Shown: piece by piece, positions 45,232 through 51,353 of the stretch | Layout: each line of letters starts with the position of its first letter | Position numbering within the stretch: the first letter of the stretch is position 1 | Source of the DNA: Taibaiella sp. | Lineage (GTDB): Bacteria; Bacteroidota; Bacteroidia; Chitinophagales; Chitinophagaceae | Length of the DNA stretch: 64,000 bases | Direction of reading: 5' to 3' | NCBI GenBank assembly: GCA_013815385.1 | Contig: JACDGL010000011.1 | Span: forward strand, 1 to 64,000 | Notes under the pieces: model-generated | What the model was told of the DNA's origin: nothing | Databases searched by the model: none | The model's input: the letters and a program-made list of their open reading frames with translations, nothing else | Made by a program: the position numbers and the translations under genes

Positions 45232-46071
45232 ATGGACGTAAAAGGCCTTAAAGAGATAGCTGCGCAGGTGCGCCGCGATATAGTACGCATGGTACATGGG
45301 GTGCAGAGCGGGCATCCCGGCGGGTCTCTGGGCTGTACAGATTATATGGTGGCCTTGTACTTCGATATTATGAAGTATGACACCAACTTTAAGATGGATG
45401 GCAAAGGGGAAGACATCTTCTTTTTATCTAACGGCCACATATCGCCCGTATTTTACAGTGTACTTGCCCGTGCGGGATATTTTCCTATAAGCGAGCTGGC
45501 TACATTCCGCAAGCTCAATTCGCGCCTGCAGGGACATCCTACCACACATGAACATCTGCCCGGTGTGCGTATTGCCAGCGGCTCACTTGGCCAGGGTTTA
45601 AGTGTAGCATCAGGCGCTGCACTTGCCAAAAAATTAAATAATGATGACCGCACCGTTTACTCTTTGCACGGCGATGGCGAATTGCAGGAAGGACAGAACT
45701 GGGAAGCGATCATGTTTGCAGCCCACCACAAAATCGATAATCTTATAGCCACAATAGATGTAAATGGTCAGCAGATAGATGGCCCCACCAACAAGGTAAT
45801 GGGGCTTGGCTCTCTGGAAGAGAAATTCAAGGCTTTCGGATGGCATGTACTAAGCATAGATGGCAACGATATGGAAGATGTGGTGAAGGGGCTAAATGCT
45901 GCTAAAGCTGCGTCTGGAAAGGGTAAGCCTGTATGTATACTGATGCATACTATAATGGGTAAGGGAGTTAAGTTCATGGAAGGCACACATGAGTGGCATG
46001 GCATAGCGCCAAACGATAAACAACTGGAAGAAGCTATGACCCTGCTGCCTTCAACTTTAGGAGATTATTAA
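45232..46071 (+). CDS. Transketolase, N-terminal (thiamine-diphosphate) subunit
   Basis: The 279 residues correspond to the N-terminal half of transketolase only: HGVQSGHPGGSLGCTDYMVAL, LSNGHISPVFYSVLA, HPTTHEHLPGVRIASGSLGQ, and the ThDP/Mg motif GDGELQEGQNWEAIMFAAHH followed by GHDMEDV-like GNDMEDV. The C-terminal pyrimidine-binding half is a separate protein in this split type; no gene for it lies within the window, so the enzyme needs a partner encoded elsewhere. Together they transfer two-carbon units in the pentose phosphate pathway. Confidence 0.94.
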   Translation: MDVKGLKEIAAQVRRDIVRMVHGVQSGHPGGSLGCTDYMVALYFDIMKYDTNFKMDGKGEDIFFLSNGHISPVFYSVLARAGYFPISELATFRKLNSRLQGHPTTHEHLPGVRIASGSLGQGLSVASGAALAKKLNNDDRTVYSLHGDGELQEGQNWEAIMFAAHHKIDNLIATIDVNGQQIDGPTNKVMGLGSLEEKFKAFGWHVLSIDGNDMEDVVKGLNAAKAASGKGKPVCILMHTIMGKGVKFMEGTHEWHGIAPNDKQLEEAMTLLPSTLGDY

Positions 46072-46550: not shown

Positions 46551-47186
46551 TTAAATGATAATTATTCTCGGCCCGTAATATTTGGGCTGTGTATTCAGAA
46601 ATAGGTCTATCAGCATTTTTATCCTCGCCAGTTTTTCTCTTACCGCTACCTTCAGGCCGTTTTCACCCGTTACATCCTGTGCGTTAAAACCTATTGCGGA
46701 TATTCCATTACGGTTGGCGATAAACAATGCCCGCTCATTATGAAAGGGCTGCGATATAACGGTTACACGATCTTCATCAAAAACCAGCTTACATCGCAGA
46801 ATACTATCCAGTGTGCGGAAACCTGCATAGTCGGTAAATATTCTTTCGGGGGGTATGCCCCTTGCTATCAGGTCCTTTTTCATTTGTTCCGGTTCGTTAT
46901 AGTGTTCGGTAGCATTGTCACCACTTACCAGAATGTATAATATTTTCCTCGATTTGTATAAAAGCACAGCCGCATCAATACGGTATTGGTAATATGGATT
47001 TAGTTTCCCCCTGCCAAGGTATTTAGAAGTGCCTAGCAGCAGGCCCACCTTATTTACAGGAATAGTAGCGGTATCTGAATATAGCTGAGATTGCGTAGAG
47101 CGCGTCACCCATCTGTCCGTCAGGAATATCCCTCCAGCTATCAGTACGACAATAACAATGATCAATAAAGGATATCGCGCAGCCAT
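46551..47186 (-). CDS. SanA-like DUF218 membrane protein
   Basis: An N-terminal membrane anchor (LLIIVIVVLIAGGIFLTDR) precedes a DUF218/YdcF-like domain: VGLLLGTSKYLGRGKLNPYY, ILYILVSGDNATEHYNEPEQM, DYAGFRTLDSILRCKLVF and VISQPFHNERALFIANRNG. This order, with NPYYQYRID and FHNERA, is that of SanA (vancomycin high-temperature exclusion protein), which helps the envelope act as a barrier in enteric bacteria. Mechanism unknown in the family. Confidence 0.9.
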   Translation of the reverse strand: MAARYPLLIIVIVVLIAGGIFLTDRWVTRSTQSQLYSDTATIPVNKVGLLLGTSKYLGRGKLNPYYQYRIDAAVLLYKSRKILYILVSGDNATEHYNEPEQMKKDLIARGIPPERIFTDYAGFRTLDSILRCKLVFDEDRVTVISQPFHNERALFIANRNGISAIGFNAQDVTGENGLKVAVREKLARIKMLIDLFLNTQPKYYGPRIIII

Positions 47187-47248: not shown

Positions 47249-48040
47249 TTAGATGTTTAGCGAAGCAGTCTTTGCTTTCAGAGTAGTAGAGGAAGAAGAA
47301 TTGATGATCTCCTGTTGTTCTTTGCTTACTTCGCGTGGTTTCATCCTTTTTTCCAGAAACCATAAGATACCAAAGCTGAGAACGAATAGGGCAGCTACAG
47401 ATATTTTGCGCCACATGGGCTGTATTTTACGAGAAGAAGGCTTACTGGATGGAAAGGAAGGTGCCATTGAGTTTAAGTGTACAGGCATTGTCTGCACCAT
47501 AAAATGTTCTACCAGGAAACTGTTATTCAGTGTGGCAACGGCATTACCGGCCATGGCACCCTGTGCATGAATGCTTTTTACTGCCTGTGCACAAAAAGCG
47601 CAGGACGAAAGATGCTTATCTATTGCAGCCTTTTCTTCGCTATACATATGATCAGTTGCATACTCTTTCAATTGCCTGGGCGATACACAAACGGTAATTT
47701 CATCCAATGCAACCGTATCTGCCGCCACCACACTATCTATACTCCTGCCACTTTTATTAGCGCAGTATTCATTAGCGGTAACCAAAAGCCACGTCCGGAA
47801 TCCCTCCCCATCAAATTTCTTCAGGGTTTTAGTTAGCTCCATGAATATATCTTTCGTGTATTCTATACCGGTTACTACGTCGTCAGTGTATCCCATACAT
47901 ATACCATATACCAGGTAGCCGTAACGGGTAAAGAGGAAGTTAAATGCACCGTGATCTTTCAGGCGCAGATATCTGTATACAAGTTCCTCGTCGGTCAGCC
48001 TCTTATATTCGGCTTTTATTTGTGGCGTCTTCGTTTTCAT
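47249..48040 (-). CDS. Sigma-factor region-2-like protein fused to an anti-sigma-type zinc finger and a membrane helix
   Basis: Residues 13-97 (LTDEELVYRYLRLKDHGAFN, LVYGICMGYTDDVVTGIEYT, FRTWLLVTANEYCANK) follow the N-terminal sigma-70 region 2 of Bacteroidota ECF sigma factors. No region 4 follows. Residues about 122-160 instead carry His143-x3-Cys147-x2-Cys150 (DKHLSSCAFC), the zinc-binding anti-sigma (ZAS) motif. A membrane helix lies at 212-229 (KISVAALFVLSFGILWFL), followed by a Ser/Thr-rich tail on the far side. The protein thus resembles a sigma core-binding domain tied to an anti-sigma anchor. It is transcribed away from hppA, start codons 131 bp apart. I start it at 48040; the frame reaches 48067. 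The function is inferred from the domain match only. Confidence 0.75.
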   Translation of the reverse strand: MKTKTPQIKAEYKRLTDEELVYRYLRLKDHGAFNFLFTRYGYLVYGICMGYTDDVVTGIEYTKDIFMELTKTLKKFDGEGFRTWLLVTANEYCANKSGRSIDSVVAADTVALDEITVCVSPRQLKEYATDHMYSEEKAAIDKHLSSCAFCAQAVKSIHAQGAMAGNAVATLNNSFLVEHFMVQTMPVHLNSMAPSFPSSKPSSRKIQPMWRKISVAALFVLSFGILWFLEKRMKPREVSKEQQEIINSSSSTTLKAKTASLNI

Positions 48041-48139
48041 GCTCTTCAGTGAAACACATTGTTTCATTTATAGCTATTTAAAAAATCATTCCACCCCATT
48101 TACCACCACGTTAATAATAGGTTTTTGGCTTCAATCTAT

Positions 48140-48170: not shown

Positions 48171-50372
48171 ATGAATATCCTTTACCTCGTGCCAGCGTTT
48201 GGCGTAGTTGCGTTGATCTATACATTTATAAAAGGTTCATGGGTTAGCAAACAAGACCCCGGTACCGACCGGATGCAGGAAATAGCCCGCTACATTTCTG
48301 AAGGGGCAATGGCTTTTTTGAAAGCAGAATATAAGATCCTTACCTATTTCGTTATTATAGCTGGCCTGCTGCTGGCCTTTATGGGCTACAGCAATCCTAA
48401 AAGCAGCTGGATGATAGCCATAGCGTTTATTATAGGTGCCTTCTTCAGCGCACTGGCCGGCTTTATAGGTATGCGCATAGCCACTAAGGCCAATGTACGC
48501 ACGGCGAATGCAGCCCGCACCAGCCTCAGCAAGGCGCTGGCTGTATCTTTTGGCGGTGGCTCTGTTATGGGTCTGGGTGTTGCCGGTTTGGCAGTACTGG
48601 GCCTGGGAGGGCTTTTTATTATCCTCAAAATGGTACTTGCGCCCAATGCTGCGGTAAACTCTGCTGAAATGGAGCGTACCATAGAAGTGCTTACAGGCTT
48701 TTCTCTTGGCGCAGAAAGCATAGCGCTCTTTGCGCGCGTGGGCGGCGGTATCTATACCAAAGCTGCCGACGTTGGTGCCGATCTTGTAGGCAAGGTAGAG
48801 GCCGGTATACCGGAAGATGATCCCCGTAACCCCGCAACCATTGCCGATAATGTAGGCGATAACGTAGGTGATGTGGCTGGTATGGGTGCCGATCTTTTTG
48901 GCTCTTATGTAGCCACTGTGCTCGCAACAATGGTACTAGGCAGGGAAACTACTGCAATAGATAATTTTGGTGGTATGTCCCCTATCCTGCTCCCTATGCT
49001 TATAGCGGGTATGGGTATTATATTCTCCATGATCGGTACATTGTTCGTTCGCATTTCCGATAAGTCGGGTGTCAGCACCTCGGCAGTACAGCGCGTGCTG
49101 AATATGGGTAACTGGGGTTCTATAGTCCTTACGGCAATAGCTTGCTATTTCCTGGTTAACTACCTGATGCCTGATAAGATGAACCTGCGTGGTTATGAAT
49201 TTACTAAAATGGGCATTTTCGGGGCAATCATGGTGGGGCTGGTTGTGGGTACCCTTATGAGCATCATTACTGAGTTTTATACGGCTATGGGCAAGCGCCC
49301 GGTTATGAGCATAGTAAGGCAGTCATCTACAGGCCATGCTACTAATATTATAGGCGGCCTTGCGGTAGGTATGGAAAGCACTTTCCTGCCTATATTGGTT
49401 CTGGCCAGTGGTATATATGGTTCTTACTATTGTGCGGGCCTTTACGGTGTGGCTATTGCCGCCGCGGGTATGATGGCTACTACAGCCATGCAGCTAGCTA
49501 TCGATGCTTTTGGCCCTATAGCAGATAATGCAGGCGGTATCGCCGAAATGAGCGAGTTGCCTAAAGAAGTACGTGAAAAAACAGATACGCTCGATGCTGT
49601 GGGCAATACTACCGCGGCTACAGGTAAGGGGTTTGCAATAGCATCTGCTGCGCTTACCTCCCTTGCGCTCTTCGCAGCTTATGTAGGCGTGGTAAAATCA
49701 AATGGGTACGACCTGCACGATGCAATCAATATTTATAAAGCCGATGTACTGGCTGGTCTTTTTGTAGGCGGCATGATACCGTTCATCTTCTCATCACTCG
49801 CTATACGCGCGGTTGGTGAGGCAGCTATGAGCATGGTAGAAGAGGTTCGCCGCCAGTTCCGTACCATACCCGGTATAATGGAAGGTACCGGCAAGCCGGA
49901 GTATGATAAGTGTGTTGCTATTTCTACCAAGGCATCTATCCGCAAAATGATGCTGCCCGGTGCTATTACCATTATCTCCCCTATCCTTATCGGTTTCATC
50001 TTCGGCCCCGAGGTACTGGGTGGCTTCCTGGCAGGCGCTACTGTATGTGGCGTGCTCATGGGTATGTTCCAGAACAATGCTGGTGGTGCATGGGATAATG
50101 CAAAAAAATCTTTCGAAAAAGGTGTAGAGATCAATGGCCAGATATACTACAAGAAATCAGAACCGCACAAGGCATCGGTAACAGGAGATACAGTAGGCGA
50201 CCCTTTTAAAGATACCTCAGGGCCATCCATGAACATCCTTATAAAATTAATGTCGATAGTTGCATTGGTAATTGCCCCAACTATCGCTACCTTGCATTCT
50301 AATAAGCAACCAACGGCAAAAATTCCCGTAAAACAGGAAGTGAAAATATCCGCTACCATAGTAGCAAAGTAA
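48171..50372 (+). CDS. hppA: Membrane ion-translocating pyrophosphatase
   Basis: The 733-residue protein has about 16 membrane segments. Pyrophosphate-binding motifs are intact: [20 protein letters not shown], then [19 protein letters not shown]. The [10 protein letters not shown] motif has Ala where potassium-independent enzymes have Lys, and Gly where they have Thr, the pattern of the K+-dependent group. It pumps H+ or Na+ using the energy of PPi. Sequence alone does not settle which ion; a Na+ pump is possible in this group. The start at 48171 ([11 protein letters not shown]) is chosen because a promoter box lies 23 bp before it and family similarity begins there. Confidence 0.97.
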
Positions 50373-50465: not shown

Positions 50466-51353
50466 TCACCTACCTATTGTTATAATTCTAGGAGGTAACG
50501 ATTGAAGATTAAATTCTTTTGCCATCTTCAAAACCCATTCAGCTAATATTTCAAATTTCTTTTTTGTTCCGACTTGTGAAATTGGAATTTTCCAAAAATA
50601 GCCGTGGCGTGCAAAGTAAATCGCTATATGATTAACTTTATGTTGATTACCATTTATTATTGACAATATATAATAGCCTAATAACTGATTATAATATTCT
50701 CTAGTCAATTTTAAATTTTTAGTGACTTTAATATCAATTAAGGTCCTGTCAATTATAATATCTGCATCAGCACCTCCAACCATGTTTGAAGCTTTACCGA
50801 AAGTCGGATTTAAATATGCAATTTTTTTAGCCGTAAAGATTTTTTTTGGAACATGTGAAATAAGCTTTTTTAAATCATTGATGTTTTTTGAAAATTCTGA
50901 ATTTTCATGGAGAAAACTATCTATAAACACAAAATTTCTGTATACATAAATGAAATCTCTTCCTGTTCGAATGTATAGATCCAAAACAGCAAGAAAAAGT
51001 GAACTTTTTACTAAATCGTCAGTATAAATCCCATTGCATTTAAAAAGATTATAATTGTGGATTGCTTTAGCATATTCTTCTGTAATTAGTAATAAATATT
51101 CTTGATTTCTGGAATAAACTTTTTTTAGTCTATTAAATGCTACAGTAGCAACCCACTCCCTATTTTCCCCAATATTTTTATTGATATATTCTACATAAAA
51201 ACGGCATAAATAGTCAAAAGCAGTGCCAACTATTCCGTAATCCTTAGTTTGGGGTTCTATTTTTATATTTTCAGTCAAACTAATTTTAGGGCACGGAAAC
51301 TCCTTCATCTTCTGTTTAACCTCATAGTCATCTAAAAAAGATAGTAAACTCAT
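50466..51353 (-). CDS. RecB/Cas4-like PD-(D/E)XK nuclease domain protein
   Basis: The 295-residue protein has no signal peptide. Its C-terminal half carries the RecB-family nuclease signature in order: Asp198 in GGADADIIIDRTLIDIKVTK (starting at 193), Asp207-x-Lys209 in that stretch, and Gln223-x3-Tyr227 in EYYNQLLGYYIL. An upstream VGTAFDYLCRF (42-52) sits where RecB/Cas4 nucleases have their G-x-x-x-H first motif, with Asp in place of His. The rest is helical. The gene is distinctly AT-rich compared with its neighbours, as a recently acquired gene would be, and stands alone between the hppA terminator and a hairpin. A role in DNA degradation or defence is an inference. No cas genes lie nearby. 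Confidence 0.7.
   Translation of the reverse strand: MSLLSFLDDYEVKQKMKEFPCPKISLTENIKIEPQTKDYGIVGTAFDYLCRFYVEYINKNIGENREWVATVAFNRLKKVYSRNQEYLLLITEEYAKAIHNYNLFKCNGIYTDDLVKSSLFLAVLDLYIRTGRDFIYVYRNFVFIDSFLHENSEFSKNINDLKKLISHVPKKIFTAKKIAYLNPTFGKASNMVGGADADIIIDRTLIDIKVTKNLKLTREYYNQLLGYYILSIINGNQHKVNHIAIYFARHGYFWKIPISQVGTKKKFEILAEWVLKMAKEFNLQSLPPRIITIGR

What the first reader, a model, noticed from the sequence alone, without database searches (positions are those of the whole stretch)
47249..48040. Sigma region 2 fused to a ZAS anti-sigma finger and a membrane helix
The N-terminal 85 residues look like the core-binding region 2 of an ECF sigma factor, but region 4 is replaced by a His-x3-Cys-x2-Cys zinc finger and a transmembrane segment with a Ser/Thr-rich outer tail. 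Such a protein could tie RNA polymerase binding to the membrane, act as a decoy, or release region 2 by proteolysis. I know of no described system with this order.
Basis: partly seen in the sequence, partly recalled or inferred. Interest (0 to 1): 0.7.

Follow-up and report, generated by a model that had tools for sequence, protein, structure and literature searches.

The report
Sigma/anti-sigma operon collapsed into one gene
A deletion appears to have merged a gene-regulator gene and the gene for its inhibitor into one hybrid that keeps half of the regulator and most of the inhibitor; it probably no longer works as a normal regulator and is either a fading leftover or a reused membrane protein.

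Summary
In detail: the 263-aa protein at 47249-48040 (-) has an ECF sigma region 2, a C...HX3CX2C anti-sigma (ZAS) segment and one membrane helix, with no region 4.

The explanation is historical. In relatives the same place, beside hppA, holds two genes: a full ECF sigma factor and a membrane ZAS anti-sigma factor, overlapping by 4 nt in 21 of 24 pairs examined. In the window's lineage about 90 codons (region 4 plus the first 7-11 anti-sigma residues) are missing and the rest is joined in frame. The anti-sigma tail is short too, as in relative G062. Among the listed matches from family, order and phylum samples and 80 named loci, no other frame spans both modules.

Region 2 evolves fast in this lineage and in two relatives, and three related genomes lack the pair at this locus. 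I think it is a remnant of a sigma/anti-sigma switch that no longer directs promoter-specific transcription. Whether it is decaying or kept as a tethered decoy or anti-sigma protein is open: the open frame and conserved motifs argue against long neutral decay, but a recent deletion would explain them. Fused sigma-ZAS-membrane proteins are known; the missing region 4 is the new part.

The parts
47249..48040 (-). hybrid gene, 263 aa: sigma region 2 - ZAS - membrane helix - short tail
47741..48004 (-). sigma-70 region 2, about residues 13-100
   Evidence: Pfam; model and VIA-align; alignment with 24 sigma factors
47693..47728 (-). deletion junction, about residues 105-116 (approximate: the linker cannot be aligned exactly)
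   Evidence: alignments with two-gene relatives
47576..47689 (-). ZAS segment, residues 118-155, C118...H143-x3-C147-x2-C150
   Evidence: alignment; NCBIfam below cut-off
47495..47533 (-). helix after the ZAS segment, residues 170-182 (LNNSFLVEHF), like the relatives' LNTDFLKEHF; possible region 2 contact
   Evidence: alignment; model; role inferred from PMC7406223 passages
47345..47416 (-). membrane helix, residues 209-232
   Evidence: model; aligns with the relatives' membrane segment
47249..47344 (-). Ser/Thr-containing tail; the long tail of most relatives is absent
48056..48097 (-). upstream element resembling one found before some of the relatives' sigma genes
   Evidence: 18 of 2000 shuffles reach its score; model from 5 sequences, pattern chosen after viewing
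48171..50372 (+). hppA, membrane pyrophosphatase (divergent neighbour, marks the locus)
46551..47186 (-). DUF218 gene downstream; also found near 7 of 24 pairs
   Evidence: Pfam

Best explanation
An ECF sigma gene and the adjacent gene for its membrane ZAS anti-sigma factor were merged by loss of about 90 codons: region 4, the gene junction and the first 7-11 residues of the anti-sigma factor. Shown: the two-gene layout at the same locus in relatives, and which parts are missing or kept. Inferred: that one contiguous in-frame deletion did it; that the hybrid sits in the membrane with region 2 held in cis by the helix after the ZAS segment; that without region 4 it cannot direct ECF-type promoter-specific transcription. 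Most likely it is a late stage in the loss of this switch, a remnant with at most residual binding.
For: Residues 1-114 and 112-245 match two neighbouring genes in relatives. Of 24 pairs, 21 overlap by 4 nt and 22 lie by hppA, as the window gene does. Region 4 scores in relatives L182 and L108 (over cut-off) but not here. Region 2 branch 1.73 against 0.10 for HppA; G266 and G062 are also fast. The pair is absent beside hppA in G020, G116 and G110, and G020 and G116 share a genus with G266 and G354, which have it. A near-invariant Gln in the region 2.2 stretch is Lys here.
Against: No stop in 263 codons, where neutral drift of 0.096 substitutions per site would leave a 5% chance (indels ignored). 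Region 2 is still 49% identical to G062, with pN 0.34 against 0.72 for shuffled codons. Its Pfam region 2 score (26.2) exceeds those of the two fast two-gene relatives, 19.9 and 22.0. Zinc-motif residues and an upstream element persist. A recent deletion would reconcile these with decay, but the age is unknown.
Confidence: 0.6

Rival explanations
1. Retained hybrid with a new job: a membrane-tethered region 2 that occupies core RNA polymerase, or an anti-sigma protein for another ECF sigma factor with region 2 as built-in competitor, perhaps switched by proteolysis.
For: Open frame, conserved motifs, region 2 score and upstream element; confidently folded modules in the model; regulated proteolysis of a sigma/anti-sigma fusion is described for IutY (PMC8999054, passages).
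Against: Seen in one genome; fast evolution and changed region 2.2 residues; the pair is absent at the locus in some relatives. No binding data.
Confidence: 0.3
2. Assembly or consensus error: the real genome has both genes intact.
For: One assembly only; no reads could be checked.
Against: The gene lies well inside a 138,669-base contig of a genome rated 100% complete and 0.01% contaminated; the join is in frame, and the anti-sigma tail is short as well.
Confidence: 0.05
3. Half of a two-subunit sigma factor like SigO-RsoA: region 4 is supplied by another protein.
For: Such a split is described (PMC8103513, passages).
Against: Of 16 region 4 (PF08281) hits in the genome, 13 lie at region 2 loci; the other three are a LuxR-type HTH in a prophage-like stretch and two sub-threshold hits in long frames. 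A very diverged partner would be missed.
Confidence: 0.02

Closest known systems
Two-gene ECF sigma / ZAS anti-sigma operon beside hppA in relatives (e.g. Taibaiella soli L111, Flavipsychrobacter L182)
   Same: Same locus, homologous region 2, ZAS segment and membrane helix
   Different: There two genes with region 4 and, in most, a long anti-sigma tail; here one gene without region 4
ECF48/ECF52/ECF53 sigma factors fused to ZAS and membrane helices, e.g. SCO4117 (PMC8999054 passages; PMC5826349 listing)
   Same: Sigma part followed by zinc finger and membrane helix in one protein
   Different: Those are sigma factors with the usual sigma domain; here region 4 is absent. Reported from Actinobacteria
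IutY, ECF243 (PMC8999054, passages)
   Same: Sigma factor fused to its membrane anti-sigma factor
   Different: Active sigma factor released by proteolysis; iron-starvation system; no region 4 loss reported in the passages seen
SigO-RsoA (PMC8103513, passages)
   Same: A protein with region 2 but not region 4
   Different: Works with SigO, which carries region 4; no such partner found here
PhyR sigma-like domain (PMC8103513, passages)
   Same: Sigma-like domain used for binding rather than transcription
   Different: Part of a response regulator; no such domain listed here

Membership tests
ECF sigma factor | region 2 | tested here: met
   Pfam over cut-off; model and alignment
ECF sigma factor | region 4 | tested here: not met
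   No region 4 model up to E 10; missing in the alignment with 24 sigma factors
ECF sigma factor | promoter-specific transcription with core RNA polymerase | not testable with these tools
   needs in vitro or reporter assay
Class I / ZAS anti-sigma factor | HX3CX2C motif | tested here: met
   H143, C147, C150, aligned with relatives
Class I / ZAS anti-sigma factor | profile match | tested here: inconclusive
   NCBIfam antisigma E 6.2e-8 but 32.9 of 100 bits; zf-HC2 no hit
Class I / ZAS anti-sigma factor | complete helix 1 (region 4 contact) | tested here: inconclusive
   first 7-11 residues of the relatives' protein are missing; helix limits not known
Class I / ZAS anti-sigma factor | binds and inhibits a sigma factor | not testable with these tools
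   needs binding assay
ECF48/52/53-type fused sigma-ZAS-membrane factor | region 2 and region 4 followed by ZAS and membrane helix | tested here: not met
   region 4 absent
[quoted passage not shown]
   none found with PF08281 in the own genome; a diverged partner could be missed

The most novel reading that the evidence does not exclude
A selectively kept membrane protein carrying a sigma region 2 and a ZAS inhibitor but no region 4: a self-inhibited, membrane-tethered RNA polymerase decoy or anti-sigma protein born by the collapse of a sigma/anti-sigma operon.
Probability: 0.25. Interest if true: 0.65.

Novelty: new variant of a known kind. Interest (0 to 1): 0.33.

Why it matters
It may show a sigma/anti-sigma switch caught at an unusual stage, the two genes merged and the promoter-reading half gone, among relatives with an ordinary pair, a fast-evolving pair, or no pair at this locus. 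If the hybrid proves functional, it would show that region 2 with its inhibitor domain can persist as a regulator without region 4.

Tried and rejected
A widespread architecture: rejected on the samples at hand. Limits: says that more matches are not listed; only the best few candidates per genome were scored (6 or 8); the three samples overlap; a diverged fusion could be missed. In one search both modules of G011 carry one frame length (553), but a TAG stop separates them, so I did not count it.

Other long sigma frames: G187, G051, G045, G239, G002, G083 and G355 had a region 2 hit but no anti-sigma hit in the stretch fetched. Further long frames (such as G242, G516, G825, G750) were not followed up.

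Hidden region 4 in residues 98-142: none. VIA-align listed no region 4 match, which excludes nothing.

Window as the only sigma of its genome without region 4: not claimed. Of 17 region 2 loci, 4 lack a PF08281 hit: two primary-like sigma factors (their region 4 was not scanned), L074 (only a weak HTH_28) and the window.

First genome-contig scan with the window protein confirmed no relative.

Dating the fusion by dN/dS: synonymous sites are saturated.

Sister relation with G062: unsettled. The HppA tree joins G062 with L085 (95), region 2 joins it with the window (77), and the ASD tree puts the window with L086 and L087 (66).

Rows dropped: the set of 'ordinary' pairs leaves out the window, L033, L086, L036 and L099. 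The HppA trees use 20 sequences, 19 of the 24 pairs plus the window. Alignments A1 and A3/A4 leave out some loci.

An earlier count said 20 of 24 pairs overlap by 4 nt; one search gives 21 of 24.

Full report
Observation. The gene at 47249-48040 (-) encodes 263 aa. Pfam gives sigma-70 region 2 (E 7e-6, just over its cut-off) and nothing else up to E 10. The AlphaFold2 model (window protein with 40 rows from related loci) has pLDDT 92-97 over residues 11-100, and VIA-align places 15-100 on E. coli sigmaE region 2 (4lup_A, Z 11.4, rmsd 2.1, 84 aligned). The tool warns that Z under about 13 can be a common arrangement for helical folds, and Foldseek had no match at E <= 0.001 (best 0.05); the sequence match decides. 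Residues 118-155 align with the relatives' ZAS segment, with C118, H143, C147 and C150 kept. Profiles support this less well: NCBIfam antisigma is below its cut-off and zf-HC2 is absent. The model has a helix at 209-232, the membrane segment. No region 4 was found.

Origin. In a search of 196 genomes, 178 had a match at 1e-3, many to region 2 alone. The best relatives showed two neighbouring genes, one matching residues 1-114 and the other 112-245. In six loci these are a sigma factor of 188-203 aa and an anti-sigma factor of 164-384 aa. In 24 pairs, 21 overlap by 4 nt, 22 have hppA in the stretch fetched and 7 have the DUF218 gene, as in the window. Compared with them the window gene lacks region 4 and the first 7-11 anti-sigma residues, about 90 codons. 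The anti-sigma tail, long and partly TPR-like in relatives such as L108 and L183, is short here and in G062 (164 aa).

Uniqueness. Of 394 family genomes, 51 matched at 1e-10 and only the window's own row covers both modules. With alignment A4, 325 of 396 order genomes and 87 of 395 phylum genomes matched at 1e-12; among the listed rows only the window's spans both modules. In 80 named loci no sigma frame contains an HX3CX2C motif; 78 have a separate next frame, and two have none by my criterion (L167; L186, cut by the contig end). In many of the more distant pairs the next frame lacks HX3CX2C in its first 90 residues.

Tempo. On the HppA tree of 20 sequences the window's region 2 branch is 1.73 against 0.10 for HppA, a ratio of 17. 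G266 (36) and G062 (6.5) are fast too. The other 17 have ratios of 0.6-6.2, except L084, whose HppA branch is almost zero. For the ASD the window's ratio (12) is not extreme, since five others exceed it, though its branch is the longest. In ordinary pairs with HppA identity of 80-87% (58 comparisons) region 2 identity is 51-74%; the window's is 35-49%, best with G062. Of well-conserved columns the window departs at 7 of 25 in region 2, like G062 (7 of 29) and less than G266 (10 of 29), and at 7 of 21 in the ASD, more than any relative; two or three of these lie at the junction. The speed-up may therefore predate the fusion. Beside hppA the pair is absent in all six further stretches looked at (G020, G116, G110, G157, G135, G046); for G020, G116 and G110 congeners with the pair exist. 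Elsewhere in those genomes it is not excluded.

Decay or function. For decay: the speed, the near-invariant Gln of the region 2.2 stretch changed to Lys (its role in core contact is recalled), absence of the pair at this locus in relatives, and one genome only. Against long neutral decay: no stop in 263 codons, pN 0.34 to G062 against 0.72 for shuffled codons with HppA dS about 1.8, a Pfam region 2 score above those of L182 and L183, and an upstream element that 18 of 2000 shuffles match. That element was defined after looking at all sequences, window included; it occurred in 7 of 24 relatives, and the scoring model rests on 5. A recent deletion fits all this as well.

Mechanism. In class I anti-sigma factors helix 1 contacts region 4 and helix 4 contacts region 2 (PMC7406223, passages). 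The loss took region 4 and the anti-sigma start, and left region 2 and the helix after the ZAS segment. A contact between these two within one chain is plausible but not shown; I did not inspect coordinates. Without region 4 I expect no ECF promoter selection (established knowledge).

Literature. Sigma factors fused to anti-sigma domains, ECF48/52/53 and IutY, are described (PMC8999054, passages), and SigO-RsoA separates region 2 from region 4 (PMC8103513, passages). The seven searches listed no paper that I recognised as describing region 2-ZAS-membrane without region 4; one search returned no paper at all, and the library holds open-licence papers only.

Noticed in passing
L032/L125 near 1490-1503 (G011; Bacteroidetes bacterium SZAS-40): Sigma and anti-sigma genes lie in the same frame, separated only by a TAG stop and one codon before the next ATG.
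   Followed up: partly
L086/L183 (G266): A shortened, fast-evolving sigma gene (175 aa; region 4 below cut-off) beside an anti-sigma gene of 332 aa.
   Followed up: partly
L218, L226, L227 (G020, G116, G110): hppA present but no sigma/anti-sigma pair beside it, although congeners have the pair.
   Followed up: partly
window 45232-46071 (+): Transketolase N-terminal part only (Pfam); the next gene downstream has no Pfam hit and is not a C-terminal part.
   Followed up: no
window 50466-51353 (-): 295-aa protein without a Pfam hit at 0.001.
   Followed up: no
L077 (own genome, contig C13, 1-4000): Prophage-like stretch with a LuxR-type HTH protein of 83 aa and a large-terminase-like gene, judged by eye.
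   Followed up: partly
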